From Asanoa ferruginea (GTDB lineage: Bacteria; Actinomycetota; Actinomycetes; Mycobacteriales; Micromonosporaceae), in NCBI RefSeq assembly GCF_003387075.1, contig NZ_QUMQ01000001.1:248001-312000 (forward strand): a stretch of DNA of 64,000 bases, read 5' to 3'. This document shows, in pieces, positions 37,637 through 53,431 of the stretch (position 1 is the first letter of the stretch; each line of letters opens with the position of its first letter). The notes below the pieces were generated by a model. That model ran no database searches. It had not been told where the DNA came from and saw only the letters and a program-made list of their open reading frames with translations. Made by a program: the position numbers and the translations under genes.

Positions 37637-38293
37637 ATGCGCATTCTGCTCGTCGAAGACGATCTGCGGGTGGCGTCCGTCATGAAGTCGATGCTGGTCC
37701 GCCGGGGTTACCAGGTCGAGCACGCCGCCACCGCCCGGGCCGCGGTCGAGGCCGCACCCTGTGACCTGGTGCTGCTCGACCTCAGCCTGCCCGACGGCGA
37801 CGGCATCGACGTGTGCCGCGCGTTGCGCACCCGCGACGACAACCTCGCGATCATCGCCGTGACCGCCCGCTCCGACGAGCGCGACAAGGTCAACGGCTTC
37901 CGGGTCGGCGCCGACGACTACGTGGTCAAGCCGTTCTCGATGGCCGAGTTGCAACTGCGCATCGAGGCGCTGCTGCGCCGGGCCGCCCGCGGCGTCGCCG
38001 CCCGGCAGACCCGCGAGATCGGCCCGCTGCGGATCGACTTCACCGCCCGCGAGGTCAGCGTCGACGCCAAGCCGGTCGCGCTGACCCGCAAGGAGTTCGA
38101 CATCCTGGCCTCGCTGGCCCGCCAGCCCGGTGTCGCGGTCACCCGCGAGCGGATCCTGCTCGACGTCTGGCAGACCACCTGGTCCGGCCGGCACACGCTG
38201 GAGGTGCACATCGCCTCCCTGCGGGCCAAGCTCGGCCAGCCCGACCTGGTCCGCACCGTGCGCGGGGTGGGCTACCGGCTCCAGGCCGAGTGA
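37637..38293 (+). CDS. Two-component response regulator, OmpR/PhoB family
   Basis: A 218-aa regulator. The receiver domain (residues 1-115) has the acidic pair in LLVEDD, the phospho-Asp in LVLLDLSLPDGDGID and the Lys in DDYVVKPFSM. A winged-helix domain follows (LTRKEFDILASLARQPGVAVTRERILLDVW; VHIASLRAKLGQPDLVRTVRGVGYRL). The ATG at 37637 has GGGAGG 7 bp upstream. It is 1 bp ahead of the sensor kinase gene. The neighbouring TAXI receptor gene suggests that the pair senses a TRAP-type substrate. Confidence 0.94.
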   Translation: MRILLVEDDLRVASVMKSMLVRRGYQVEHAATARAAVEAAPCDLVLLDLSLPDGDGIDVCRALRTRDDNLAIIAVTARSDERDKVNGFRVGADDYVVKPFSMAELQLRIEALLRRAARGVAARQTREIGPLRIDFTAREVSVDAKPVALTRKEFDILASLARQPGVAVTRERILLDVWQTTWSGRHTLEVHIASLRAKLGQPDLVRTVRGVGYRLQAE

Positions 38294-38294
38294 C

Positions 38295-39686
38295 GTGCGG
38301 CGCCGGCTCGTCACCACGTACCTCCTGCTGGCCTGTCTGGTGCTCCTGGCACTGGAGGTGCCGCTGGGGCTGGTGATGAGCGGGCGAACCACCCAGGCGC
38401 TGCTCGCCGACCGGCTGGCCGACGCGACCCGGTTCGCGGCGCTGGTGGCACCCGCGATGCGCGGCGGCGAGCTCGAACCGGTCCGCGCGGAGCTGACCCG
38501 CTACCACGATCTCTACGGCATCGTCGTGATCGTCGTCGACCAGAACCGGCGGGTGGTGACCCACGCCGGCGCCCGGCCCGGCCTCGACACCGACCCGGTC
38601 GTCCGCGGCGCGCTCGCCGGCCGGCAGGTCAGTTCGCCGACCAACGTCTGGCCCTGGCAACGCAGTTCGCTGCTGGTGGCGGTGCCCGTCTACGAGGGCG
38701 GCGAGGTGCTCGGCGGGGTGCTGACCATCTCGTCGACCGAGCGGGCCCGCGGCTCGATGCTCTTCGCCTGGTCGGTGCTCGGCGTGGTCGGGCTGGTGGC
38801 ACTGGTGGGTTCGCTGGTGGCGGCGGTGCGGCTCGCGCGCTGGGTGCTGCGGCCCGTCCTCTCGCTCGACACGGCCGTCCACGAGATCACCGCCGGCGAC
38901 AGCACCGCCCGGGTGCCGCACGCGCTCGGCCCGCCCGAACTGCGCCGACTGACCACCAGCTTCAACGAGATGGCCGACACCGTCTCCGACGCCCTAGAAC
39001 GGCAGCGGCTCTTCGTCGCGCACGCCAGCCACCAGCTCCGCAACCCGCTCACCGTGCTCCGGCTCCGGGTCGAGGGCCTGGGCGACATGCTGCCGCTGGC
39101 CGCCCGGGCCGAGCACCACCTGGCGCTGGAGGAGTCCGACCGGCTCAGCCGGGTGCTCGACAGCCTCCTCGCCCTGGCCCGCGCCGAGTGGGACGGCCGC
39201 CCGCCGATCACCGTCGACGCCGCCGAGCTGGTCGCCGCCCGGGTAGAGGCCTGGCGCCCGCTGGCCGATCAGCGCGGCGTCGCACTGACGGCCGAGGTGC
39301 CGACCGAGCCGGTGCCCGCCGAGGCCGCCGACACCGCACTCGACCAGGCACTCGACGCGCTGATCGACAACGGCCTGAAGTTCGCCGGCGCCGGCGGCCA
39401 GGTGACGGTCTCGGTCGAGGTGGTGGCCGGCCGGGCGGTGGTCACCGTTCGCGACGACGGCCCCGGGATGACCGCCGACCAGTGCCGCCTCGCGACCCGG
39501 CGGTTCTGGCGGGCCCCGAACACCCAGAACGTCGACGGCGCCGGGCTCGGCCTGTCGATCGCGACCGTGCTGGTCGAGGCGTCGGGCGGCACGCTGACCC
39601 TCACGCCCCGCGAGCCCCGCGGCTTGGTCGCCCGGGTCCGGCTACGGCTTCACCGAGCGGAAATAACGGGCGGCGCCCGGGTGTAG
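38295..39686 (+). CDS. Sensor histidine kinase
   Basis: A 463-aa membrane kinase. Helix 1 is at residues 5-28 (VTTYLLLACLVLLALEVPLGL), an extracytoplasmic loop of about 130 residues, and helix 2 near 160-185 (WSVLGVVGLVALVGSLVAAV). A HAMP domain, the HisKA box with phospho-acceptor H246 (HASHQLRNPLTVL), and HATPase motifs N (LIDNGLKFAG), G1 (VRDDGPGM) and G2 (GAGLGLSIATVLVEASGG) follow. GTG start at 38295. Its 3-prime end overlaps the convergent TAXI gene by 45 bp. Confidence 0.93.
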   Translation: MRRRLVTTYLLLACLVLLALEVPLGLVMSGRTTQALLADRLADATRFAALVAPAMRGGELEPVRAELTRYHDLYGIVVIVVDQNRRVVTHAGARPGLDTDPVVRGALAGRQVSSPTNVWPWQRSSLLVAVPVYEGGEVLGGVLTISSTERARGSMLFAWSVLGVVGLVALVGSLVAAVRLARWVLRPVLSLDTAVHEITAGDSTARVPHALGPPELRRLTTSFNEMADTVSDALERQRLFVAHASHQLRNPLTVLRLRVEGLGDMLPLAARAEHHLALEESDRLSRVLDSLLALARAEWDGRPPITVDAAELVAARVEAWRPLADQRGVALTAEVPTEPVPAEAADTALDQALDALIDNGLKFAGAGGQVTVSVEVVAGRAVVTVRDDGPGMTADQCRLATRRFWRAPNTQNVDGAGLGLSIATVLVEASGGTLTLTPREPRGLVARVRLRLHRAEITGGARV

Positions 39687-40592
39687 CGGGACCGGCATGG
39701 TGCCGATCGCCGACCTGACGTCGAACCGCTCCCCCGCCGGGTGCGCGCGGGCCAGGGCCTCGTGCTTCTCCATCAACAGCTTCGTCAGGTTGTAGGCGAC
39801 GTCGTCGGGCATGTCGGTCGGCACCACGAGGAAGTTGGGCACGGCGAGGGTGCTGACCGCGGGCAGGTTGTAGACGGAGTCGTTGACCTCGCGCTGCACG
39901 TACACCATTGAATGGGCCTTGCGCATCGGCTCGACCCACGCGCCGAGATCGACGATCCGGATGCCCAGGCTGTTGTTGAGATCTTCGATCGCCTGCACCG
40001 GCAGCCCGCCGGAGAAGAAGAAGGCGTCGATCCGCCCGTCGCGCAGCGCGGCCGCCGAGTCGTCGAGCCCCAGCCCTTCGGTCTGGATCATGCCGGGCGC
40101 GCTCAGCCCGCCGACCCCGAGCAGCCGCTTGACAGTGATCTCGGTGCCGGATCCCGGCGCCCCGATCGCGACCCGGCGGCCCTTCAGGTCCTCGAGCGAG
40201 CTGATCGCCGAATCGGACGGCACGACCAGATGCAGAAGATCTTCATAGACCCGAGCCAGCGCGCGTACGCGTGGGTCCGGCGGCGCCGAGCCCGTGACCA
40301 GGATGTCGGCCTGGGTGAAACCGATCTCCGCGCCCTTGCTCTCGACCAGCCGCACGTTTTCCACGGAGGCGGCCGTGACCATCACCTGCGCGTCGGTGTC
40401 GGGCAGGTTGTCGTCGACGAGCTGGCCGAGTGCCTTGCCGAATGCGTAATAGACGGCGGTCTGGCTGCCGGTGGCGATCCGGATGTGGGTGACCGGCGGA
40501 TTCCCCTCGCCGGCGACGCCGATGCCGATGAGCAGCAGCACGAGGACCGACAGTCCGGTGCGCCGCGCCTCGATCACCCTCACGCAGCGCAA
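39642..40592 (-). CDS. TAXI-family TRAP solute receptor
   Basis: A 316-aa periplasmic-type binding protein. A hydrophobic N-terminus (GLSVLVLLLIGIGVAG) acts as signal or anchor; no lipobox Cys is seen. The body has TAXI features (IRIATGSQTAVYYAFGKAL; VENVRLVESKGAEIGFTQADIL; LKGRRVAIGAPGSGTEITVKRLL; RDGRIDAFFFSGGLP). No TRAP membrane subunit (DctQ/DctM) is nearby, so the receptor may serve sensing by the adjacent kinase rather than uptake. Start is TTG 40592 (AGGA 5 bp upstream) or GTG 40583. The last 45 bp overlap the kinase gene on the other strand. Confidence 0.88.
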   Translation of the reverse strand: MRCVRVIEARRTGLSVLVLLLIGIGVAGEGNPPVTHIRIATGSQTAVYYAFGKALGQLVDDNLPDTDAQVMVTAASVENVRLVESKGAEIGFTQADILVTGSAPPDPRVRALARVYEDLLHLVVPSDSAISSLEDLKGRRVAIGAPGSGTEITVKRLLGVGGLSAPGMIQTEGLGLDDSAAALRDGRIDAFFFSGGLPVQAIEDLNNSLGIRIVDLGAWVEPMRKAHSMVYVQREVNDSVYNLPAVSTLAVPNFLVVPTDMPDDVAYNLTKLLMEKHEALARAHPAGERFDVRSAIGTMPVPLHPGAARYFRSVKP

Positions 40593-40661
40593 GTTTTCCT
40601 CAAGTAAGGGGCTCGCGCATACCCCCTGAACGGCCGGACCGCCACGCTGAACCCGGAGGCG

Positions 40662-41426
40662 ATGACGATGGCCATGCAGCGTGAAACCACTGAATCCGCG
40701 GCCATGCGGTCACTGCCCGCAGCCTTCGAGGCGGCCTGCCTCATCCGATGCACCGGCGTGGGCCGCTCTCCGGCACCGAGATCCGGCACGGGGGCGGATT
40801 TCGCGGGCGACTTCAGACCTGGGCCCGGGCCGGCACCCGGACCCACGCCCGCTCTGTCGGGCACCGACGCCGCGCCGGCCTGGGCCGGCGCGGCGCTCCG
40901 GGTGCTGCCGGAGGCACCGGAACAGACCCTGGCGGAGTTCAACCAGCCCGAGGCCGCGGCCCGGCTGGCCAAACTCCTGACCGACCTGGGCGTTTCCGCG
41001 ACGAGCGCGACGCTGGTCGGCGGCGGGCGGCGGCAGTATTTCGTGCACCGGGTGACGGTGCCGGCCGCTGTTTTCTTCGAGACTTCGCAGCGATTGACCT
41101 CGGCGTGGCGGCAGGGTCGGCACTTCCTGCTGCGGACCGACCCGGTGGGTGCTTCGTCGCCACACAACGCGCGGCGCGAGACACTCGCCCGGCGGGCCTG
41201 GCAGGCGGCGTCACTGGCCGCGGGCCGGCAGCGGCGAGGCGGCATCTTCGGGGTGCGGCTGGCCGACCAGGAAATGGCCGCGGTGCTGGTCCGGGGTGCG
41301 CGGCTACTGGGAGGGACGGCGTCCATCCGGTCGCGGCCGGGTTGTCTGCAGGTGTCGGTGACGTCGGTCTCCTCCGATGCGGCGCTGCTGGAGATCGCGA
41401 CACCCCCGCTCCGCGCGGCGTCGTGA
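40662..41426 (+). CDS. Hypothetical protein
   Basis: A 254-aa frame that I do not recognise. After a Gly/Pro-rich stretch (residues 40-75) it has a mixed alpha/beta region (TLAEFNQPEAAARLAKLLTDLG; GGGRRQYFVHRVTVPAAVFFETSQRL; GGIFGVRLADQEMAAVLVRGARLLGG). GGAGG lies next to the ATG at 40662. Long open frames exist on both strands here because of high GC, so the frame choice is moderate; this one best keeps protein-like periodicity. It ends 41 bp before tRNA-Gly. Confidence 0.55.
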   Translation: MTMAMQRETTESAAMRSLPAAFEAACLIRCTGVGRSPAPRSGTGADFAGDFRPGPGPAPGPTPALSGTDAAPAWAGAALRVLPEAPEQTLAEFNQPEAAARLAKLLTDLGVSATSATLVGGGRRQYFVHRVTVPAAVFFETSQRLTSAWRQGRHFLLRTDPVGASSPHNARRETLARRAWQAASLAAGRQRRGGIFGVRLADQEMAAVLVRGARLLGGTASIRSRPGCLQVSVTSVSSDAALLEIATPPLRAAS

Positions 41427-41467
41427 GCGAGCCAGTACGCTGTCGGATGTGCGCCCGCGGCGCACCC

Positions 41468-41541
41468 GCGGGCGTAGCTCAATGGCAGAGCTTCAGTCTT
41501 CCAAACTGACGGTGCGGGTTCGATTCCCGTCGCCCGCTCCA
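41468..41541 (+). tRNA. tRNA-Gly (TCC), CCA encoded
   Basis: Acceptor stem GCGGGCG/CGCCCGC, D arm GCTCAATGGCAGAGC, anticodon stem TCAGT/ACTGA around loop CTTCCAA (anticodon TCC), T loop region GGGTTCGATTCCC, discriminator T at 41538 and encoded CCA at 41539-41541. The sequence from the anticodon stem to the end (41496-41540) is repeated twice downstream, making this gene an integration target. Confidence 0.96.
41496..41540 (+). repeat. Direct repeat 1: tRNA-Gly 3-prime half, att site
   Basis: The 45 bp from the anticodon stem to the tRNA end match exactly the copy at 42909-42953 and, with changes, the copy at 46899-46945. Such identity blocks are left by tyrosine-recombinase integration into tRNA genes. 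A further 40 bp after the repeat (GGGGGCGAC, TTGCGGT at 41621-41627) is also shared, but here it is separated from the tRNA by a 46-bp insert. Confidence 0.85.
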
Positions 41542-42543: not shown

Positions 42544-42908
42544 GCAAGCCTTCGTAACCGCGGGGCGCTGCCCCGGACCCCGGTCCTCCTCGGAGATCAG
42601 CATCTTGTGGGGATCTCCTCGGTCGTGCACCCGGGACGGCTACACGGGAACCTCCGACGCCGCCAAGGCCAAGCCGCTTCGCGGTCGCCTTCGGCGAGCC
42701 TTGACCCGACCGGAGAACCCCGCGCAGGGTTGAACCTGCCCGACAGAGGAGATCCCGCCGCGAGCCGAAGGTGTGGGGAAGAACCAAGATCGCCGTGCCA
42801 TCCACGTGCCAGTAGAGCGTGCCACAAGGGGTCGTCAAGGGTCACCTGCGGGCATGACGACCACGTCGCTGAGCTGCACGTTCGCGCTCAGCGGCCTGGC
42901 CGGTTGAC
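42544..42908. other. Gene-poor end of the first insert
   Basis: These 365 bp between the small hypothetical gene and the second att repeat contain no frame I would call a gene. Short open frames on both strands lack ribosome-binding sites and protein-like composition. It is probably decayed element DNA. Confidence 0.5.
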
Positions 42909-42953
42909 GTCTTCCAAACTGACGGTGCGGGTTCGATTCCCGTCGCCCGCTCC
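42909..42953 (+). repeat. Direct repeat 2: duplicate tRNA-Gly 3-prime half
   Basis: Exact 45-bp copy of 41496-41540, with the CC of the CCA end but no 5-prime half, so it is not a functional tRNA. It is followed directly by GGGGGCGACCCC and then CCACGTTCC and TTGCGGTT, the flank shared with the other two copies. This uninterrupted form probably reflects the element-borne att sequence. Confidence 0.88.
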
Positions 42954-43149
42954 GGGGGCGACCCCGGACACCCCACGTTCCAGTGGTTGCGGTTAGTCGG
43001 TATCCGGGCGGTCGCCCGCTGGTGGGGCGACGGTGTTGCAGGAATGGCGCAGGTCGTGGACGTGGAAGTCGTCGTCCCTGCTGGCCGCGGGGTCGAGTCG
43101 CGATCGAGACTGCATAAACGATGTGGGTTCCTGATCCTGCCCGGCTCGC

Positions 43150-43692
43150 CTAGCCGGCACTCGCCGCGGTTAACACCATTGTCGGTCTAGTCCATGGCCG
43201 AATCTTTCTGCCGGCTGCCGGCGACGCGCCGACGTGCACGTGGATATGACGCGGCAACGATCGGTGCGTGAACGGATGGCGCAATGCTGTCAGCGTTGCA
43301 AAATCTGGATCATCTACTACGTCTGACAACCATGCGGCGCACCCAGAGCAGAGCTGTGATTGATTCTTGGGTCTGCCAAGTTCCCCGACGTCGTACGCAC
43401 GGTCTGGACGGTGCGGAAGATGGAGTGCTCCGATAGACGCGGCGGCTAGGTCAACAGCGGTCATCGCAGTCCCAACCGCCCATCGAGCGTGTGTGATGTC
43501 AACGGTATCCACGTGGTGTGCGCCGATGCTCCTTGTCGCGCCGCGGAAGACATCGTCATCGAGGTCGTCAAGATAGGCCAGCCCGTCGACCGACCAGATT
43601 GCCCAGATGGCATACGTGCCGGCAATCTGCGTCTTGGCCCCTAGGGCGCGGGCAGACTCTTCTAGATCAAGGGGCCAAGCGTATGGCGGCAT
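43150..43692 (-). CDS. HEPN-like protein with Rx4H motif
   Basis: A 180-aa mainly helical protein. R138-HPFT-H143 in TALRHPFTHRSLPRHI matches the Rx4-6H ribonuclease motif of HEPN domains and sits, as expected, near the C-terminus of the helical core (DITHARWAVGTAMTAVDLAAASIGALH). HEPN RNases are toxins or effectors in many defence systems. Family assignment rests on this motif and helix pattern only. It is divergent from the first nuclease-like gene with 110 bp between, a likely shared control region. Confidence 0.65.
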   Translation of the reverse strand: MPPYAWPLDLEESARALGAKTQIAGTYAIWAIWSVDGLAYLDDLDDDVFRGATRSIGAHHVDTVDITHARWAVGTAMTAVDLAAASIGALHLPHRPDRAYDVGELGRPKNQSQLCSGCAAWLSDVVDDPDFATLTALRHPFTHRSLPRHIHVHVGASPAAGRKIRPWTRPTMVLTAASAG

Positions 43693-43802
43693 GCGCAGAA
43701 TACTATCCAGGTCGTCGAGCGGTTTGTCGCTCGCTCGGGCAAGGCCAATCCAGAGGTCCGTGCACGCTGCGCTTCCGAGCCTCCACCCGCTATGGTGGGG
43801 CC

Positions 43803-44600
43803 GTGATCTGGCTTCCTAAATCGTCGGTGGAGCTGAACGCGATCGGGCACCAAATCATGGTCCGTGATCCCGAAACGTTGTTGCATGCGGTTGATGAACT
43901 CATATCCGTCGGATCAGAGGTCAGCAATCTCAAGATCCGCGCAGGCGAACACCTTGCCGCACTCATGCTCACGGCCGTATGCGGACCGCCAACATCCATT
44001 GACACCGTCGGCCAGGTCGACCTTCTCTTCGACCGGGAGGCACTGACATCACACGATTGGTGTTTTGGCGCCGCCGGTCGTGCCGCCGTCGAAGTTAAGT
44101 CCTACGCTGGCGTTTTCCGCGAGGTCGAGAGCCGAATCAGGCCCGGAGATTTGCATGCCGTGACGATCCGAAGTGCGCTGGATATTCTTCTAGACGCGTC
44201 GCCCCAAATCGATAGAGCCATCGATGCTTTGGAGCGAAAGACTGGACCACAAATTTCAAGGAATGTCTTTCTTGTAATCCACATGTTTGATGCAGTTGCG
44301 GTTGAGGCCTACGACGAGATGCCATTCATCGGACATCGGCTTCCACTCGTTGCACCGTCGGTTGGCCTCGACACTCTTTGGATCCTATGGCATCCGGGGA
44401 TGCTGACAATGTGGTCGAAAAACGATCAACGGTGGATCGACGTCATTTTCGCCAATGAGGACCCTTTCGCCGAAGAGGCTGACGAAATGGATATCATTCA
44501 ACAGGCCGAGGAAACGTTTCTATCGGCGACCGGCCATCGCGGAGATTCGCCATGGTTGTACAAATTAGTTCAATTGCCTGAATCAATGAAAGACCTATGA
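43803..44600 (+). CDS. Putative PD-(D/E)xK nuclease, protein A of a pair
   Basis: A 265-aa protein I do not recognise as a named family. D73 in VGQVDLLFD followed by E97-V-K99 in AAVEVKSYAG has the spacing and hydrophobic setting of a PD-(D/E)xK catalytic core. The rest is mixed alpha/beta (HAVTIRSALDILLDASPQIDRAIDALE; NVFLVIHMFDAVAVEAYDE). Codon use is clearly more AT-rich than outside the island. GTG 43803 has GGTGGGG upstream. The second nuclease gene starts 150 bp downstream on the same strand. A role in defence is inferred from neighbours and fold. Confidence 0.65.
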   Translation: MIWLPKSSVELNAIGHQIMVRDPETLLHAVDELISVGSEVSNLKIRAGEHLAALMLTAVCGPPTSIDTVGQVDLLFDREALTSHDWCFGAAGRAAVEVKSYAGVFREVESRIRPGDLHAVTIRSALDILLDASPQIDRAIDALERKTGPQISRNVFLVIHMFDAVAVEAYDEMPFIGHRLPLVAPSVGLDTLWILWHPGMLTMWSKNDQRWIDVIFANEDPFAEEADEMDIIQQAEETFLSATGHRGDSPWLYKLVQLPESMKDL

Positions 44601-44750
44601 CGGAATACCTCACCCCTGGGCGCACTGATCCGGAGTCCCTAAACGGGTGCGCAGTGGTGGCCGATGATGCCCGGCCCGTATGCGGAGTTTCTGATCATGC
44701 CGTTAAGGCGATACGCTGTTTGCCAGGCCCTCAACCTCGGTTGGTGATCA

Positions 44751-45671
44751 ATGAAGAAGATCAGCCCCGGAGCGTTCCCAGCACTCAAGGACTCCCTTTC
44801 GTTGATTTACTGGTATCGCTCGGACTTAGTAAGCTTCCTACAGAGTGCCTTGTCCGGGACCCCAGAGATTTTGGCGGTTGCCACTTGGGACGGTCCAAAG
44901 CGGAACATCGCAAGCCACATCGTTGACGTCCTGGCACGCAACGAGGAGCGCTATCAAGGTCAAATTCTCAGCCTAATGACTCAAGTGGCTGAGGTGACCG
45001 ACTTCCGGCATCTAGAGAAGCTTGATGACGGCAAGAAGAAAGCCGAGGACGCGCGCCATGCGGTCGAGGCGCTACGCCGGTGGATCACACCCCATGCTGA
45101 CCAATTGGCAGAAGAGAAGGCGGCCGAGGAGCGGCGGCGAATTGCGTACGAGACGGCGCTCCGAACGCAGGGTGTCAGAGAAAAGCTAGCCGAATTGCAC
45201 ATCCTTATGTTGGACGTGATCCAGCCGAGCGCGCCTCAGGCACGCGGTTACAAATTGGAAAAGCTTCTTAGGGAACTCTTTGCACTTTTTGACTTAGACC
45301 CGCGGGCATCCTTTAAGATCGATGGAGAACAGCTCGACGGGTCGTTCACGTTCGACAATACCGACTACCTTCTTGAGGCCAAGTGGGAGGCCGAACCCAC
45401 TGACGTGCCTGACCTCTCTTTCTTCAAGGATAAGATTGAGGATCGCTTAGAGAACACTCTCGGCCTTTTCGTTGCGATGAATGGCTATACAGCCAGAGCC
45501 ATCAGCCGCTTTTCGGCCAAGCGGTCACTGATGATTCTCATGGACGGCGGGGACCTCATGGCCGTCTTAGAAGGTCGGATTGACCTTGGTGACTTGCTCC
45601 TCCGCAAGCGTAGGCACGCCGCGCAAACGGGAGAGATCTACCTGCCGGTCTACAGGATCCTCAGTGATTAG
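44751..45671 (+). CDS. Mrr-like restriction endonuclease-fold protein with helical N-terminal domain
   Basis: A 306-aa protein. Residues 1-110 form a helical domain (PALKDSLSLIYWYRSDLVSFLQ; IASHIVDVLARNEERYQ; LTQ-like region to LEKLDDGKKK). A coiled-coil-like segment follows (115-150). The nuclease core begins at 165: E170 in GYKLEKLLRELF, D196 in GEQLDGSF and E209-A-K211 in LLEAKW, the complete PD-(D/E)xK set of the Mrr_cat type. The C-terminus (LLLRKRRHAAQTGEIYLPV) is well conserved in relatives I recall. No methylase is nearby, which fits a type IV-like or abortive enzyme. ATG 44751; AT-rich codons. Confidence 0.8.
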   Translation: MKKISPGAFPALKDSLSLIYWYRSDLVSFLQSALSGTPEILAVATWDGPKRNIASHIVDVLARNEERYQGQILSLMTQVAEVTDFRHLEKLDDGKKKAEDARHAVEALRRWITPHADQLAEEKAAEERRRIAYETALRTQGVREKLAELHILMLDVIQPSAPQARGYKLEKLLRELFALFDLDPRASFKIDGEQLDGSFTFDNTDYLLEAKWEAEPTDVPDLSFFKDKIEDRLENTLGLFVAMNGYTARAISRFSAKRSLMILMDGGDLMAVLEGRIDLGDLLLRKRRHAAQTGEIYLPVYRILSD

Positions 45672-45823
45672 GCTGTGACCGCGGATTACTCTTGCCCGCG
45701 GGGCGTGAGCTGCTCGGTCGCGCCAGACTGCCGAAATGGCCTCCCAGAAATCAAGGCGCCGGTCGGGGCGTGACTTCGCCAGGCATCGCGCTCTAGGCCC
45801 CGGCCCGCCACGCGCTGGCTAAA

Positions 45824-46579
45824 CTAAGCGGCGGGCTGATCGTCCGCGCCGACGCTGGCCTGGTCTGGAACGCGCACCTCGCTTGGGCGGTCCGGTGCTA
45901 GGTGTGACACGTCAAGCCGAACGACTCGACGGGCCGACACGACCGTGTATTGCCACTCGAGCGGGACCTTTTCGCCGTCAGCGGTGGTGAGTTCGAGCGG
46001 ACTTTCGAGCATCAGCTCACGGTCTGCTGTCTCCGCTGCGGCTACATTGAAATGAGAGAGCCGACCTCGGAGATAGCTCCCGTCTTCCATCTGGGCGCCG
46101 ACCTCGATTGGACCTGGGTCATCGGCGTAAAGGTTCATCACGATGTACCAGGCGGAGGCTCGCTTCACATCGGTGTCTGTATGCGCTGTTAGCCACCTCA
46201 GCGGTCGTCTAACGGCTAGGCGCTCGGTCAGCCGAACAATCCTAGGATCGGCGGCGATCAGCCCAATTCCGACCGCCAGACTGAGGTAGGCAAGCGACCA
46301 CCACGTCACCTCGATGTGGTGGATGCGCGCAAATCGCGCCGGTTGCTGGACCAGCCCTCCAAAGTTGAGCGTGTGCTCTGGCCAGAGCCACCGAGCAAAC
46401 GCGAAGATGAGGCTGGCGGTGGCTAGGCACAGGATGCTTACAGCTACAACTAGCACGGTCTCGCGGAACGCCGAGTACGTTCTTACCGGTCGGATGCGCT
46501 CCTGGCGCAGCACGAATCCCAGGCCAGGCGCAAGGAGCAGGACGAAGAGCGCTAGGCCGAGGAGCGACGAGGGAACCAA
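45824..46579 (-). CDS. DUF6338 membrane protein
   Basis: A 251-aa protein with an N-terminal helix (LLGLALFVLLLAPGLGFVLRQ), a second (TVLVVAVSILCLATASLIFAF), and a third (WWSLAYLSLAVGIGLIAA), then a cytoplasmic beta-rich domain (VGAQMEDGSYLRGRLSHFNV; KVPLEWQYTVVSARRVVRLDVSHL). This is the DUF6338 pattern. The start appears to be TTG at 46579 because no ATG or GTG precedes the membrane helix. It follows the 54-aa gene by 9 bp, an operon. Function unknown; association with mobile DNA here is notable. Confidence 0.78.
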   Translation of the reverse strand: MVPSSLLGLALFVLLLAPGLGFVLRQERIRPVRTYSAFRETVLVVAVSILCLATASLIFAFARWLWPEHTLNFGGLVQQPARFARIHHIEVTWWSLAYLSLAVGIGLIAADPRIVRLTERLAVRRPLRWLTAHTDTDVKRASAWYIVMNLYADDPGPIEVGAQMEDGSYLRGRLSHFNVAAAETADRELMLESPLELTTADGEKVPLEWQYTVVSARRVVRLDVSHLAPDRPSEVRVPDQASVGADDQPAA

Positions 46580-46588
46580 CCGCGGTTC

Positions 46589-46753
46589 CTACTTCGTCTT
46601 TCCGCTCGGCGGAGGCGTCGCCGGAGACTTCGTCGGCCTTGGCTGCGCGGCCGCGTTCTTGGCGCCAGGTGCCTTCTGCTGCCCCTCCCTGAACTCGCCC
46701 TGAGGGTTGCCTTTCCGATCGAAGGTGCGCGTACGACGATCGTCCTTAGCCAC
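46589..46753 (-). CDS. 54-aa basic protein paired with DUF6338
   Basis: A highly charged small protein (VAKDDRRTRTFDRKGNPQGEF, then a Lys/Pro/Ala-rich tail ending SGKTK). GTG 46753 has GGAAGGGGG about 5 bp upstream; a longer frame from 46780 is less likely. It is 9 bp ahead of the DUF6338 gene. Similar short basic proteins next to DUF6338 genes are familiar to me, but no function is known. Probably disordered. Confidence 0.65.
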   Translation of the reverse strand: MAKDDRRTRTFDRKGNPQGEFREGQQKAPGAKNAAAQPRPTKSPATPPPSGKTK

Positions 46754-46898
46754 TTGGCCCCCTTCCGAGCGCGCAACCATAGCGCACCGCTGCCGCCTGG
46801 CGCGACGACCCGCCGACCCACCCGTCGTTAGGTGTCTCCTTCAGACATCACGAAGCCTCCGAGCTGCGGTTTCATGGTCGGTGACCCGGTCGGTCGAC

Positions 46899-46966
46899 GT
46901 CTTCCAAACTGACGACGATGCGGGTTCGATCCCTCTCGCCCACGCCACGTTCCGGCGGTTGCGGTC
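46899..46966 (+). repeat. Direct repeat 3: diverged tRNA-Gly 3-prime half
   Basis: Starts with GTCTTCCAAACTGACG, gains a four-base ACGA insertion, continues GCGGGTTCGATCCC with scattered changes, then shares CCACGTTCCGGCGGTTGCGGTC with the flank of repeat 2. Both repeats 2 and 3 are preceded by GAC immediately before GTCTTCC. The divergence suggests that this is the oldest junction. Confidence 0.75.
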
Positions 46967-49643: not shown

Positions 49644-50078
49644 ATGCTGTCCGAAGCGCTCGCCGCGTTGGCGACCAGTGGTGGCACGGTGCTCGCGGGG
49701 GCGATCGCCACGGACGCGTGGAAAGTGGCTCGCGACGGCATCGGGCGGCTGTTCGGTAAGGCGGGGCCGGAGAGCCGGGCTGCGGTCGAGGCGCAGCTGG
49801 ACACCAACGTCGCGCTGGTGGAGCGGTCGGCAGAGCCCGAGCGGGCCCGGCAGGCGCTGGCTCCACTGTGGCAGCTTCAGTTCACCCAGCTCCTCGAGGA
49901 CAATCCCGAGCTGGAAGCCGATCTTCGTGAACTCGTGCGCCAGGTCGAGGCGGCCCTGCCGGCGCAGCAACAGCAGTGGGTGCAGACCAACGTCGCGCGC
50001 GACAACGCGCGGCTGTTCGCCGTGCAGGGTGGCAACATCGTTTACCACGAACTGTCCGACGAGGACCCGCGAGGATGA
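49644..50078 (+). CDS. Small membrane-type partner of a STAND-TPR protein
   Basis: A 144-aa protein. The N-terminus (LAALATSGGTVLAGAIATDAW) is a small-residue hydrophobic segment with GxxxG-like spacing that may enter the membrane. A helical middle follows (ESRAAVEAQLDTNVALVERS; FTQLLEDNPELEADLRELVRQVEAAL), then a short beta-type tail NARLFAVQGGNIVYHEL, a motif style also seen in conflict-system proteins. Its stop overlaps the start of the 1118-aa STAND protein (ATGA), so the two are made together. It is a candidate effector or membrane anchor; no enzyme motif is visible. Confidence 0.75.
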   Translation: MLSEALAALATSGGTVLAGAIATDAWKVARDGIGRLFGKAGPESRAAVEAQLDTNVALVERSAEPERARQALAPLWQLQFTQLLEDNPELEADLRELVRQVEAALPAQQQQWVQTNVARDNARLFAVQGGNIVYHELSDEDPRG

Positions 50079-53000
50079 ACCCGGCGGGCGCGGCGTGGCA
50101 GCCCACCAGCGTCCGGCAGGACGTCCGTGCCGACGGTGGCTTCGCCTACGCGGTGATCGGCGCCGACCTCAACGTGTTCGCCGACCGCGGTCCGACCTAT
50201 CTGCTTCGCGCGCGCCGGCCGGCTGCCGCCGTGCCACCCGAGTGGCTGCTCGCGCAGCCGAGCCGGCTGCTCAACGCCCACCACGCGGTGGTCGGCTTCA
50301 CCGGTCGCGACGCCGAGTTGGCCGCGCTGACGGATTGGCGGGAGAGCGGGCCACGGTTGGCGGCCCGGTGGCTGCACGCACCGGGCGGGCAGGGCAAGAC
50401 GCGGCTGGCCGACGAGTTCGCCCGGCGGTCGGCCGCGGCCGGTTGGAAGGTCGTCGACGCGGTGCCCGGTGTCGGCACGATCCTGCCGGCCGCGAGCCAG
50501 GAGGACCTGCGGCTCGGCGACGCCGCGGGAGTGCTCCTGGTCGTCGACTACGCGGACCGATGGCCCCGCTCCGACCTGACCTGGCTGTTCAGCAACGCGC
50601 TCGTGCAGCATGCCGTGCCGACCCGGCTGCTGCTGGTGGCCCGCAGCGTCGTCCCCTGGCTCTCGGTGCGGGCCGCGCTCGACCGGCTTCAGGCCGGCAC
50701 CAGCGAACAGGCACTGCGGCCGCTCGCCGACGACCGGGGTGAGCGCGAACGGATGTACGCGGCCGCGTGGACCTCCTTCGCCGCCCGCTACGGGACCGCA
50801 CAGGACGCCGGATCGCTGCCCGCCGGCCTGCTCGACAAGCCCGAATACGGGCTGACCCTGGCCATTCACCTCGCCGCGCTGGTCTCCGTCGACGCGATGG
50901 TGCACCGGCGGCCGTACCCCGACAGCGTTCTGGGTCTTTCCGCTTATCTCCTGGATCGGGAGCGTGAGCACTGGGAGAAGCTGCACACCAGCGGCACCGA
51001 CTTCCAGACCCCGCCGCGGGTGATGGGTCGGGCGGTTTTCGTGGCGGCGCTGACCGGATCGCTGCCGCACCGCGACGGCAGCGCGGTCCTCCGCCGGGTC
51101 GATCTGGAAACCCACCCGGACCGCGTCCTCGGCGACCACGCGGTCTGCTATCCGCCCGCCGACGCGAGCGAAGGCGGCGTGCTCGAGCCCCTCTACCCTG
51201 ACCGGCTCGCGGAAGACTTCCTTGCCCTGAGCCTGCCCGGCCACGCGCTCGATGGCCATCCCGCCGACCCGTGGGCGTCCTCCGCGCTCCCCGAGATCGT
51301 CACCGGCGACGTGCCCTATCTGAGCCGGGCGATCACCTTCCTGGCCGCCGCGGCCGGCCGCTGGCCCAGCGTGGGCGAACGGCATCTCTACCCGCTGCTG
51401 CTCGCCAATCCCGGCCATGCCGTCGCCGCCGGCGGTGCCGCGCTGGCGGGCCTTGCCGAGTTGCCCAGCATCCCGGTGCCGCTGCTGGAGGCCATCGAGG
51501 CCGAGCTGCCCGACACCCGCGACGTCGACCTGGACGTGGGCATCGCCGCCGTCGCCGCCGCACTCGCGGCCCACCGACTCGCCGGCGATCCGGATCCGGC
51601 GCGAAGGGTGGGCGTCCAGTGGGAGCTCAGCATCCTGCTGTCGAATGCCGGTCGGGACCGGGAAGCGTTGGAGGCGGCCCAGCAAGCGGTCGCGCTGGCT
51701 CGACATCTCGTCGCCGGCGACCGCGCGGCCTTTGAACCCGATCTCGCGGACTCGTTGGCGACGCTGGGCGGGGCGCTGTCGACGCTCGGGCAGTGGGCCG
51801 ACGGGCTCGGTGCGACCACCGAGGCGGTCGAGCTCCATCGCCGGCTCGCCGCGCGCGACCCGGGCACCTTCGGGCAGGCACTGGCCAGGGGCCTGCACAA
51901 CCTCAGCATCGCGCTGGCCGCGGCGGGGGCGCGGGAAGAGGCGGTCGAGGCGGCCGAGGAGGCCGTCGCGATGCGTCGGCGCACCGATCTCCCCGACAAC
52001 GCCGACCATCTCGCCGGAGCGTTGGACAACCTGCGGGTACGACTGATCGAGGTCGGCCGGTTCGACGGCGCGTTGGGCCTGGCCGAGGAGGCGGTCGCCG
52101 CGCACCGGGACATGGTCGCGGCGAATCCGGCCGCCTTCGGGCCGGACCTCGCCCGGGTCCTGTCGAATCACAGCGTCCTGCTGACGAAGGTCGGGCGGCA
52201 CGCGGAGGCGGTGGCCGCCGCCGAGGAAGCGGTCGCCATGGGTCGAGGGCTGGCCAGGGCCAACAAAACGGCGTTCGAGGTCGATCTGGCCACCTCGTTG
52301 ACCAACCTCGGCAACGCCCTGTCCGAGCTTGGGGAACGCGCCAGGGCGTGCGAGGCGACCAGCGAGGCGGTCGAGCTCTACCGCGAACTCGCGCGTGGCA
52401 ACGCCGGCCTCGTCGCCAACCTGGCGCTGGCCCTGTCCAACCTCGGGAAGCACCTGGCCGACGTCGGAAGGCTCGAGGAAGCCCTTGACGCCACCGACGA
52501 AGCCGTCGAGACGCGCCGGCAGCTGGCGGCCGAAAACCCCGCCGCCCATCGGCCGGGCCTGGCCACGTCGCTGGACGCGCTGGGCAAGCGGCTCTACGCG
52601 GCCGGGTTGCTCCGCGAGGGCCTCGACGCGTCCAGCGAGTCCGTCGAGATCCGCCGGGGACTCGTCGCGGACCATCCGGGTGCCTTCGACGCCGACCTGG
52701 CGACCTCGTTGACCAACGACGGCACCCTGCGCTGGGGGCTCGGGCGTCGCGAGGAGGCGCTGGCGGTGACGGCGGAGGCGATCGAGGTGCGCCGGCGGGT
52801 GGTGACCCGGGGCGTCGACGCCCCTGAACTCGCGGCCGCGCTGGCCAACTTCAGCGCCATGCTCGCCGGCGCTGGGCGGCTGGAGGAGGCGCTCGCCGCG
52901 GCGACCGAGGCCGTGGCGCTCTACCGGCAGCAGTCCACGAGCTATCCGGCGGTCGCCGCGCCGGGGCTGTCGGCGTCGTTGGCGAACCTCGGCCTCGTCC

Positions 53001-53431
53001 TCGCGTTCGTCGGGCGGCAGACCGAAGCACTGGCCGCCACTCAGGAGGCGGTCGCGATCCGGCGGGTGCTGGCCGCCGAGAACCCCATGGCTTTCGAACC
53101 GGAGCTGGCCGCCTCGCTGACCAACCTGGTCGCCGATCTGCTCGCCCTCAACCGGCTCGCCGAAGGGTTGGCGACCGCCGAGGAAGCGGTCAGCAGCTAC
53201 CGGCGGCTCACGGGCACCAGCCCGGGCCGCTTCGCCGGCGGGCTGGCCACCGCGCTGACCAACCTCTGCATCGCCCTCTTCGCGGCGGGCCGGGCGAAGG
53301 ACGCGCACCGCGCCGGAACCGAGTCGGTCGAGATCTTCGAGGCGCTGGCACGGGTGTCGCCGGGCGTCTTCGAGGCAGACCTTGCCCGGGCCCGGGGGCT
53401 GGTCAAGGACCTTCGACGTAAGCGGCGCTAG
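50075..53431 (+). CDS. STAND NTPase with C-terminal tetratricopeptide array
   Basis: A 1118-aa protein. Residues 22-44 hold a short motif (GFAYAVIGADLNVFADRGP, then YLL). The NTPase domain begins FTGRDAELAAL near 75; Walker A is GGQGKT at 104-109 and Walker B LLVVDYAD at 154-161. A winged-helix/arm region to about 500 precedes about 14 TPR units (EALEAAQQAVALARHL; REEAVEAAEEAVAMRR; EEALDATDEAVETRRQL) that run to the end. STAND proteins oligomerise when the repeat domain detects a ligand; many are antiphage sensors. No effector domain is fused, so the coupled 144-aa protein may supply it. Confidence 0.88.
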   Translation: MNPAGAAWQPTSVRQDVRADGGFAYAVIGADLNVFADRGPTYLLRARRPAAAVPPEWLLAQPSRLLNAHHAVVGFTGRDAELAALTDWRESGPRLAARWLHAPGGQGKTRLADEFARRSAAAGWKVVDAVPGVGTILPAASQEDLRLGDAAGVLLVVDYADRWPRSDLTWLFSNALVQHAVPTRLLLVARSVVPWLSVRAALDRLQAGTSEQALRPLADDRGERERMYAAAWTSFAARYGTAQDAGSLPAGLLDKPEYGLTLAIHLAALVSVDAMVHRRPYPDSVLGLSAYLLDREREHWEKLHTSGTDFQTPPRVMGRAVFVAALTGSLPHRDGSAVLRRVDLETHPDRVLGDHAVCYPPADASEGGVLEPLYPDRLAEDFLALSLPGHALDGHPADPWASSALPEIVTGDVPYLSRAITFLAAAAGRWPSVGERHLYPLLLANPGHAVAAGGAALAGLAELPSIPVPLLEAIEAELPDTRDVDLDVGIAAVAAALAAHRLAGDPDPARRVGVQWELSILLSNAGRDREALEAAQQAVALARHLVAGDRAAFEPDLADSLATLGGALSTLGQWADGLGATTEAVELHRRLAARDPGTFGQALARGLHNLSIALAAAGAREEAVEAAEEAVAMRRRTDLPDNADHLAGALDNLRVRLIEVGRFDGALGLAEEAVAAHRDMVAANPAAFGPDLARVLSNHSVLLTKVGRHAEAVAAAEEAVAMGRGLARANKTAFEVDLATSLTNLGNALSELGERARACEATSEAVELYRELARGNAGLVANLALALSNLGKHLADVGRLEEALDATDEAVETRRQLAAENPAAHRPGLATSLDALGKRLYAAGLLREGLDASSESVEIRRGLVADHPGAFDADLATSLTNDGTLRWGLGRREEALAVTAEAIEVRRRVVTRGVDAPELAAALANFSAMLAGAGRLEEALAAATEAVALYRQQSTSYPAVAAPGLSASLANLGLVLAFVGRQTEALAATQEAVAIRRVLAAENPMAFEPELAASLTNLVADLLALNRLAEGLATAEEAVSSYRRLTGTSPGRFAGGLATALTNLCIALFAAGRAKDAHRAGTESVEIFEALARVSPGVFEADLARARGLVKDLRRKRR

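What the first reader, a model, noticed from the sequence alone, without database searches (positions are those of the whole stretch)
43150..45671. Candidate defence module: HEPN-like protein opposite two PD-(D/E)xK nuclease-like proteins
Two consecutive AT-rich genes each retain a nuclease core (D73/E97-K99; E170/D196/E209-K211), and a divergent gene has an Rx4H ribonuclease motif. There is no methyltransferase, so this is not a classical R-M system. The first nuclease-like protein matches no family I can name. The combination on a tRNA-borne island fits an unrecognised defence system.
Basis: partly seen in the sequence, partly recalled or inferred. Interest (0 to 1): 0.8.

Follow-up and report, generated by a model that had tools for sequence, protein, structure and literature searches.

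The report
Unlinked nuclease-like genes in tRNA island
A small gene island inserted next to a tRNA gene in a soil actinobacterium holds two probable DNA-cutting enzymes and what looks like a worn-out toxin-like gene; they look like separate, independently acquired defence genes rather than one new system, but one of the two enzymes belongs to a rare family that matched none of the reference collections searched.

Summary
The genes are really there. A (43803-44600, 265 aa), B (44751-45671, 306 aa) and C (43150-43692, minus, 180 aa) sit with a DUF6338 gene in an AT-richer block between copies of the tRNA-Gly 3' end; the block is absent from the 14-19 kb read downstream of that tRNA in 5 of 5 congeners. 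The 'module' is not supported: B is not found at 10 of 10 other A-family loci, and among 61 relatives only this genome has both. B is a solitary Mrr_cat-type endonuclease relative, an ordinary kind. C's RxxxxH is kept in 3 of 3 sequences, but C lacks the tail that follows it in both relatives: probably a decayed HEPN gene. A is the interesting part: a rare, unnamed family without a significant match in Pfam, PADLOC, NCBIfam, PHROGs or PDB sequences. Its ordered core E49-D73-E97xK99 is invariant in 9 of 9 sequences, 30-48% identical apart from three near-identical rows. Three relatives lie beside or near DarTG, AbiJ-like or ApeA-like genes. Most likely A is a stand-alone PD-(D/E)xK-like restriction nuclease.

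The parts
41468..41541 (+). tRNA-Gly (tcc), proximal end of the insertion hotspot
   Evidence: ARAGORN; the stretch upstream of it (38000-41467) matches all five congeners over part or all of its length
42909..42953 (+). exact 45-nt copy of the 3' part of tRNA-Gly (attachment-site-like repeat)
43150..43692 (-). C: HEPN-like 180-aa protein, RxxxxH at residues 138-143, lacks the C-terminal segment of its relatives; probably decayed
   Evidence: homologue L045 (E 5.2e-23), motif in 3 of 3, tail not found in any frame of 42700-43900 beyond a 15-residue chance-level match
43803..44600 (+). A: 265-aa PD-(D/E)xK-like protein of an unnamed family, GTG start; core E49, D73, E97, K99
   Evidence: 9-sequence alignment; no significant family match
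44751..45671 (+). B: 306-aa solitary Mrr_cat-type restriction endonuclease relative with an unassigned N-terminal part (looks helical by eye); core E170, D196, E209, K211
   Evidence: 8-sequence alignment; 7 of 8 members match PF04471 at E 1 or better, B itself not; the relative is annotated 'restriction endonuclease' in 5 of 5 plasmid loci opened
45824..46579 (-). D: DUF6338 protein, function unknown
   Evidence: Pfam PF19865 E 1.1e-28
46899..46947 (+). degenerate third copy of the tRNA-Gly 3' part (82% over 49 aligned positions)

Best explanation
The block 42954-46898 is a strain-specific insertion at a tRNA-Gly hotspot that carries independently acquired defence-type genes, not one machine. 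A is most likely a stand-alone nuclease of the PD-(D/E)xK type: E49, D73 and E97-x-K99 would hold the metal and cut invading nucleic acid, and the C-terminal half with its three invariant tryptophans would bind or recognise the target. With no methyltransferase beside it, A should either cut only modified DNA (type IV-like) or be idle until infection. B would act alone as an Mrr-like endonuclease, its N-terminal part serving recognition or regulation. C is probably a decayed HEPN RNase gene. Shown: the genes, the conserved cores, the tRNA repeats, the lack of co-occurrence in what was searched. Inferred: nuclease activity, metal site, target, defence role, decay of C.
For: E49, D73, E97, K99 are invariant in 9 of 9 A sequences while 33 of 265 positions are invariant (chance that four named positions all are: 2e-4, without correction for kinship). 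E49 lies in KxxxGExLAA ahead of the D and ExK positions, the order expected of PD-(D/E)xK (recalled). A-family genes occur without a constant partner: the G008 homologue directly after an Mrr_cat protein, DarT and DarG; the Micromonospora homologue 105 bp from an AbiJ_NTD3 protein; the Mycolicibacterium homologue 3.6 kb from an ApeA_NTD1/HEPN protein. Two further relatives are decayed copies in which the core part was not found. The family is rare: 2 of 61, 2 of 396 and 3 of 300 genomes, this genome included, in overlapping sets. B: 7 of 8 aligned members match Mrr_cat at E 1 or better, best 2.7e-10; PADLOC PDC-S02 in 4 of 8 and mREase_IV in 2 of 8, weakly (best 1.2e-4 and 2.3e-4); 2 of 5 plasmid relatives opened lie beside AbiEii with Qat or Hachiman genes. 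The block is absent downstream of tRNA-Gly in 5 of 5 congeners, and A and B are not found in those five genomes.
Against: No profile, solved-structure sequence or profile-profile match ties A to any nuclease; A family against B family by hhalign has probability 0.3%. No fold was predicted. The neighbourhood argument has no statistical control, rests on three loci, and at the Rhodococcus, Streptomyces and Corallococcus loci I could assign no known defence gene to the immediate neighbours (the pooled scan does not say which member matched). The other three B plasmid loci opened show no recognised defence system beside B's relative except toxin-antitoxin genes and, 3.7 kb off, an Abi gene. B itself does not match Mrr_cat. 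Expression of A and B is unknown.
Confidence: 0.6

Rival explanations
1. A and B (with or without C) form one unrecognised two- or three-gene defence system in which two nucleases act together.
For: They are adjacent, co-directional, 150 bp apart and share the island.
Against: B not found at 10 of 10 other A loci; A not found at the ten B-family loci fetched, short flanks; among genomes searched with both, only this one has both.
Confidence: 0.07
2. A is not a nuclease: the invariant acidic residues and lysine serve another purpose, for example a binding protein or an antitoxin-like partner.
For: No similarity to any known nuclease profile or solved structure; the loose motif alone arises in 62% of shuffles; the A homologue follows a toxin-antitoxin pair in G008.
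Against: All four core residues invariant in 9 of 9, in the expected order and mostly hydrophobic surroundings; no constant toxin partner at the loci read.
Confidence: 0.2
3. The whole block is a decaying, unexpressed cargo remnant with no present function.
For: C is shorter than both relatives; no PF00589 integrase in the window; the third tRNA repeat is degenerate; two A relatives elsewhere are decayed.
Against: A and B are intact frames that align over nearly their whole length with relatives, cores kept; D covers nearly its whole Pfam profile.
Confidence: 0.15
4. C and A are a divergent toxin-antitoxin pair (HEPN RNase with A as its neutraliser).
For: Divergent neighbours about 110 bp apart; C keeps RxxxxH.
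Against: C has no hit better than E 0.18 at the other A loci; G239, which has the closest C homologue, shows no A match, though it is only 81% complete; C lacks its last segment.
Confidence: 0.03

Closest known systems
PD-(D/E)xK nuclease superfamily, stand-alone restriction nucleases (for A)
   Same: Order of the conserved acidic residues and lysine; no methyltransferase in the block; some relatives in defence neighbourhoods
   Different: No significant sequence or profile similarity to any described member; conserved C-terminal half with three invariant tryptophans; fold untested
Mrr_cat solo restriction endonucleases (PF04471; PADLOC PDC-S02 and mREase_IV weak matches among relatives) (for B)
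   Same: Homologous to proteins that match Mrr_cat; E170/D196/E209-K211 kept; relatives annotated 'restriction endonuclease'
   Different: B itself does not match the profile; no Mrr_N match, a different N-terminal part
HEPN superfamily RNases (for C)
   Same: RxxxxH with a polar residue after the R, kept in 3 of 3 sequences
   Different: No profile match; C ends soon after the motif, without the segment (probable helix 4) that both relatives have
tRNA-integrated genomic islands
   Same: Copies of the tRNA 3' end flank the block; strain-specific content at a conserved site
   Different: No tyrosine integrase in the window; one repeat degenerate

Membership tests
PD-(D/E)xK superfamily (A) | ordered acidic/Lys core conserved across the family | tested here: met
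   E49, D73, E97, K99 invariant in 9 of 9 sequences; three of the nine rows are 99-100% identical to one another
PD-(D/E)xK superfamily (A) | alpha-beta nuclease fold | not testable with these tools
   structure prediction switched off
PD-(D/E)xK superfamily (A) | similarity to a described family profile or solved member | tested here: not met
   A alone: no Pfam, PADLOC or NCBIfam match at E 5, PHROGs best E 0.23; nine members at E 1: one irrelevant Pfam match (E 0.14), none in PADLOC; PDB best E 0.1, an ABC exporter
PD-(D/E)xK superfamily (A) | metal-dependent nucleic acid cleavage | not testable with these tools
   needs protein
Mrr_cat endonucleases (B) | match to PF04471 | tested here: inconclusive
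   B itself no match at E 5; 7 of 8 aligned family members match at E 1 or better, best 2.7e-10
Mrr_cat endonucleases (B) | catalytic core acidic residues and lysine | tested here: met
   E170, D196, E209, K211 invariant in 8 of 8
E. coli Mrr-type type IV enzyme (B) | Mrr_N winged-helix DNA-binding domain | tested here: not met
   Mrr_N is not among the 7 Pfam families found in the 8 members; domain plan of E. coli Mrr from passages of PMC3874153
HEPN RNases (C) | Rx4-6H motif conserved | tested here: met
   R138 and H143 in 3 of 3 aligned sequences, one of them a weak relative (E 0.07)
HEPN RNases (C) | helix 4 after the motif | tested here: inconclusive
   the tail of the two relatives is absent from C and from the frames around it; that the tail is helix 4 is inferred from passages of PMC3710099; no helices were predicted here
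A+B defence module | co-occurrence across genomes | tested here: not met
   0 of 10 other A-family loci carry B; two of them decayed copies, three near-identical
Classical R-M system | methyltransferase gene beside the nuclease | tested here: not met
   the block holds A, B, C and D; none is a methyltransferase by Pfam
tRNA-integrated island | direct repeat of the tRNA 3' end | tested here: met
   45 of 45 nt at 42909-42953, degenerate copy at 46899-46947
tRNA-integrated island | integrase gene | tested here: not met
   5 PF00589 matches in the genome, none inside the window; serine recombinases not sought

The most novel reading that the evidence does not exclude
A founds a new, rare, horizontally moving family of stand-alone, self-sparing restriction nucleases: a PD-(D/E)xK-like core fused in one chain to an unknown recognition half with invariant tryptophans, spread across actinobacteria and a myxobacterium, working without a methyltransferase or any partner.
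Probability: 0.35. Interest if true: 0.5.

Novelty: new variant of a known kind. Interest (0 to 1): 0.35.

Why it matters
A family with a conserved nuclease-like core that the reference libraries searched here miss is an easily testable one-gene defence candidate, and its lack of a methyltransferase raises the plain question of how the host DNA is spared. The negative result also matters: two adjacent nuclease-like genes on one island need not be a system.

Tried and rejected
Rejected: the A+B(+C) module (no co-occurrence); C as an intact HEPN toxin (missing tail); A as a detectable member of the B family (hhalign probability 0.3%). The ORF 44597-44926 that overlaps the end of A and the start of B was set aside because it overlaps B by 176 bases in another frame. 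Weak C hits in L029, L030 and L031 were read and judged chance, since the matching ORFs look like unrelated membrane-type proteins; L028, L047 and L048 were not read. The hit in G231 (E 2.7e-4, one stop inside; L046) is undecided.

Led nowhere: A in phage records (none); A, A1, B and C in viral contigs (none); C in phage records (none); accession numbers and a locus tag of A and B relatives in the paper library (0 papers). B was not searched in phage records. Papers: PMC3874153, PMC11514479, PMC11719660 and PMC3710099 were seen as passages only; all others as search listings. Only sought A directly, so I do not claim that A is absent from print.

Limits: searches used A without its first residue. 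Not every gene at the A loci was scanned. The pooled PADLOC scan of 53 chosen neighbours listed 25 of 39 families without saying which member matched. The whole-genome collection scan for A used short exact peptide patterns (104 stretches, 3 relatives) and can miss relatives. Of 7 plasmid records with A, 4 were fetched. L054 was dropped as a duplicate of L012. The L055 copy rests on the profile search; tblastn of A alone does not find it. There is no control for the defence-neighbour argument.

Full report
What is there. In 42954-46898 four genes stand in an AT-richer block (GC 0.60 against 0.70 for the window): C (43150-43692, minus), A (43803-44600, plus, GTG start), B (44751-45671, plus) and D (45824-46579, minus; DUF6338). 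The block lies between an exact 45-nt copy of the 3' part of tRNA-Gly (42909-42953) and a degenerate copy (46899-46947); the intact tRNA-Gly is at 41468-41541. The stretch upstream of the tRNA matches all five congeners over part or all of its length, while the block itself has only matches under 80 bases in the 14-19 kb read downstream of tRNA-Gly in 5 of 5 congeners. A and B are not found in those five genomes. No PF00589 integrase lies in the window; the genome has five matches. So this is a strain-specific insertion at a tRNA-Gly hotspot whose integrase was not found.

Gene A. No Pfam, PADLOC or NCBIfam family matches A at E 5, and its best PHROGs match has E 0.23. Scanning the nine members of its alignment at E 1 gave one irrelevant Pfam match (E 0.14) and no PADLOC match. 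Its profile finds nothing convincing in the PDB sequences (best E 0.1). Counts per search, this genome included where it was searched: 2 of 61 relatives, 2 of 396 in the phylum, 3 of 300 in the family (the third, G555, is the M. zingiberis genome), 1 of 221 and 1 of 200. The last two are partial: the match begins after the nuclease core, and I take them for decayed copies. In nine aligned full-length sequences E49, D73, E97 and K99 are invariant, with 33 invariant positions in all. Apart from the three Rhodococcus rows (99-100% alike) the pairs are 30-48% identical. The motif by itself would be worth little, since 62% of 5000 shuffles of A contain its loose form, and 8% a form with hydrophobic flanks.

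Neighbours of A. G008: an Mrr_cat protein, DarT, DarG, then A; I attribute the one mREase_IV match of the pooled scan to that Mrr_cat protein. Micromonospora: a convergent AbiJ_NTD3 protein 105 bp away and a PIN gene. Mycolicibacterium: DUF5677, a protein with weak RT-Protease and LmuA matches, and an ApeA_NTD1/HEPN protein. Rhodococcus: an AAA-like gene below the Pfam cut-off and a DUF2201 VWA-like gene. Corallococcus: an acetyltransferase next door and an ATPase matching PADLOC HEC-03B about 5 kb away. Streptomyces: a transposase-like gene, by eye. The pooled scan also reports one-member matches to PD-T4-6, mad6, MkoA and PDC-S02 models that I cannot assign. There is no constant partner in what was read, and I have no random control for this list.

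Gene B. Relatives occur in 1405 plasmid records, but in only 5 does one place cover at least 80% of B; the rows shown are mostly C-terminal matches. In the 5 plasmid loci opened the relative is annotated 'restriction endonuclease', in two of them next to AbiEii with Qat genes or Hachiman genes nearby. Seven of eight aligned members match Mrr_cat, though B itself does not; PADLOC PDC-S02 matches 4 of 8 and mREase_IV 2 of 8, weakly. B's own best PADLOC match is Cas11a at E 6e-4, outside the nuclease part, which I take for chance. E170, D196, E209 and K211 are invariant in 8 of 8. No member matches the Mrr_N domain that E. coli Mrr carries (passages of PMC3874153). B is an ordinary solitary endonuclease relative.

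Gene C. One clear homologue (G239, 35% identity, E 5.2e-23) and one weak Rhodococcus relative (E 0.07) keep RxxxxH. RxxxxH alone occurs in 52% of 5000 shuffles of C. In HEPN proteins the motif lies at the end of helix 3, before helix 4 (passages of PMC3710099). Both relatives have a further segment after it; C does not, and that segment is not found in the six frames of 42700-43900, where its best match is 15 residues long at chance level. C is probably decayed. Of 151 relatives and 296 phylum genomes searched, 5 and 5 reach E 0.01; this genome and G239 are the clear ones, G231 (E 2.7e-4) is undecided.

Test of the module. tblastn of B against the eight other intact A loci and the two loci of decayed copies gives nothing better than E 0.75; C gives nothing better than E 0.18 there and D nothing better than 0.63. 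Three of the eight are near-identical Rhodococcus plasmids, so six are independent. A has no hit at E 0.05 in the ten B-family loci fetched, whose flanks are about 1-4 kb. Among the 61 relatives searched with both, only this genome has both A and B; three of the four B matches there are partial. The B-bearing phylum genomes G141 and G336 show no A match. The A+B system is therefore not supported.

Mechanism. The best reading is two independent one-gene nucleases. A would cut invading nucleic acid with a metal site built on E49/D73/E97/K99; since no methyltransferase is present it must recognise modified DNA or be switched on by infection. This is inference: the fold could not be predicted and no activity is known.

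Host. The M. zingiberis record is the same contig as G555, a genome of the window's own family, so the window comes from the family of Micromonospora (inference).

Noticed in passing
window 42561-42953: A 393-base segment that ends in a tRNA-Gly 3' copy is 87-92% identical in 4 of 5 congeners (over 328-394 aligned bases), at very different distances from the tRNA gene; it looks like the conserved distal end of the hotspot.
   Followed up: partly
window 45824-46579: DUF6338 gene inside the island; no PADLOC match.
   Followed up: partly
L055 9641-10138 and L056 9923-10330: Partial, probably decayed copies of the A family in which the nuclease core was not found; the one in L055 lies next to a pair that looks by eye like a Panacea-type toxin-antitoxin system.
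   Followed up: partly
L011 6052-10586: Mrr_cat protein, DarT, DarG and an A homologue in a row: a compact defence cluster.
   Followed up: partly
window 49976-53431: Large repeat-rich frame (1151 aa) with many similar stretches just outside the island; looks TPR-like by eye.
   Followed up: no
L003 7187-12268: Rhodococcus plasmid gene row downstream of the A homologue: AAA-like protein, DUF2201 VWA-like protein, two unknown proteins and a helicase-like protein.
   Followed up: partly
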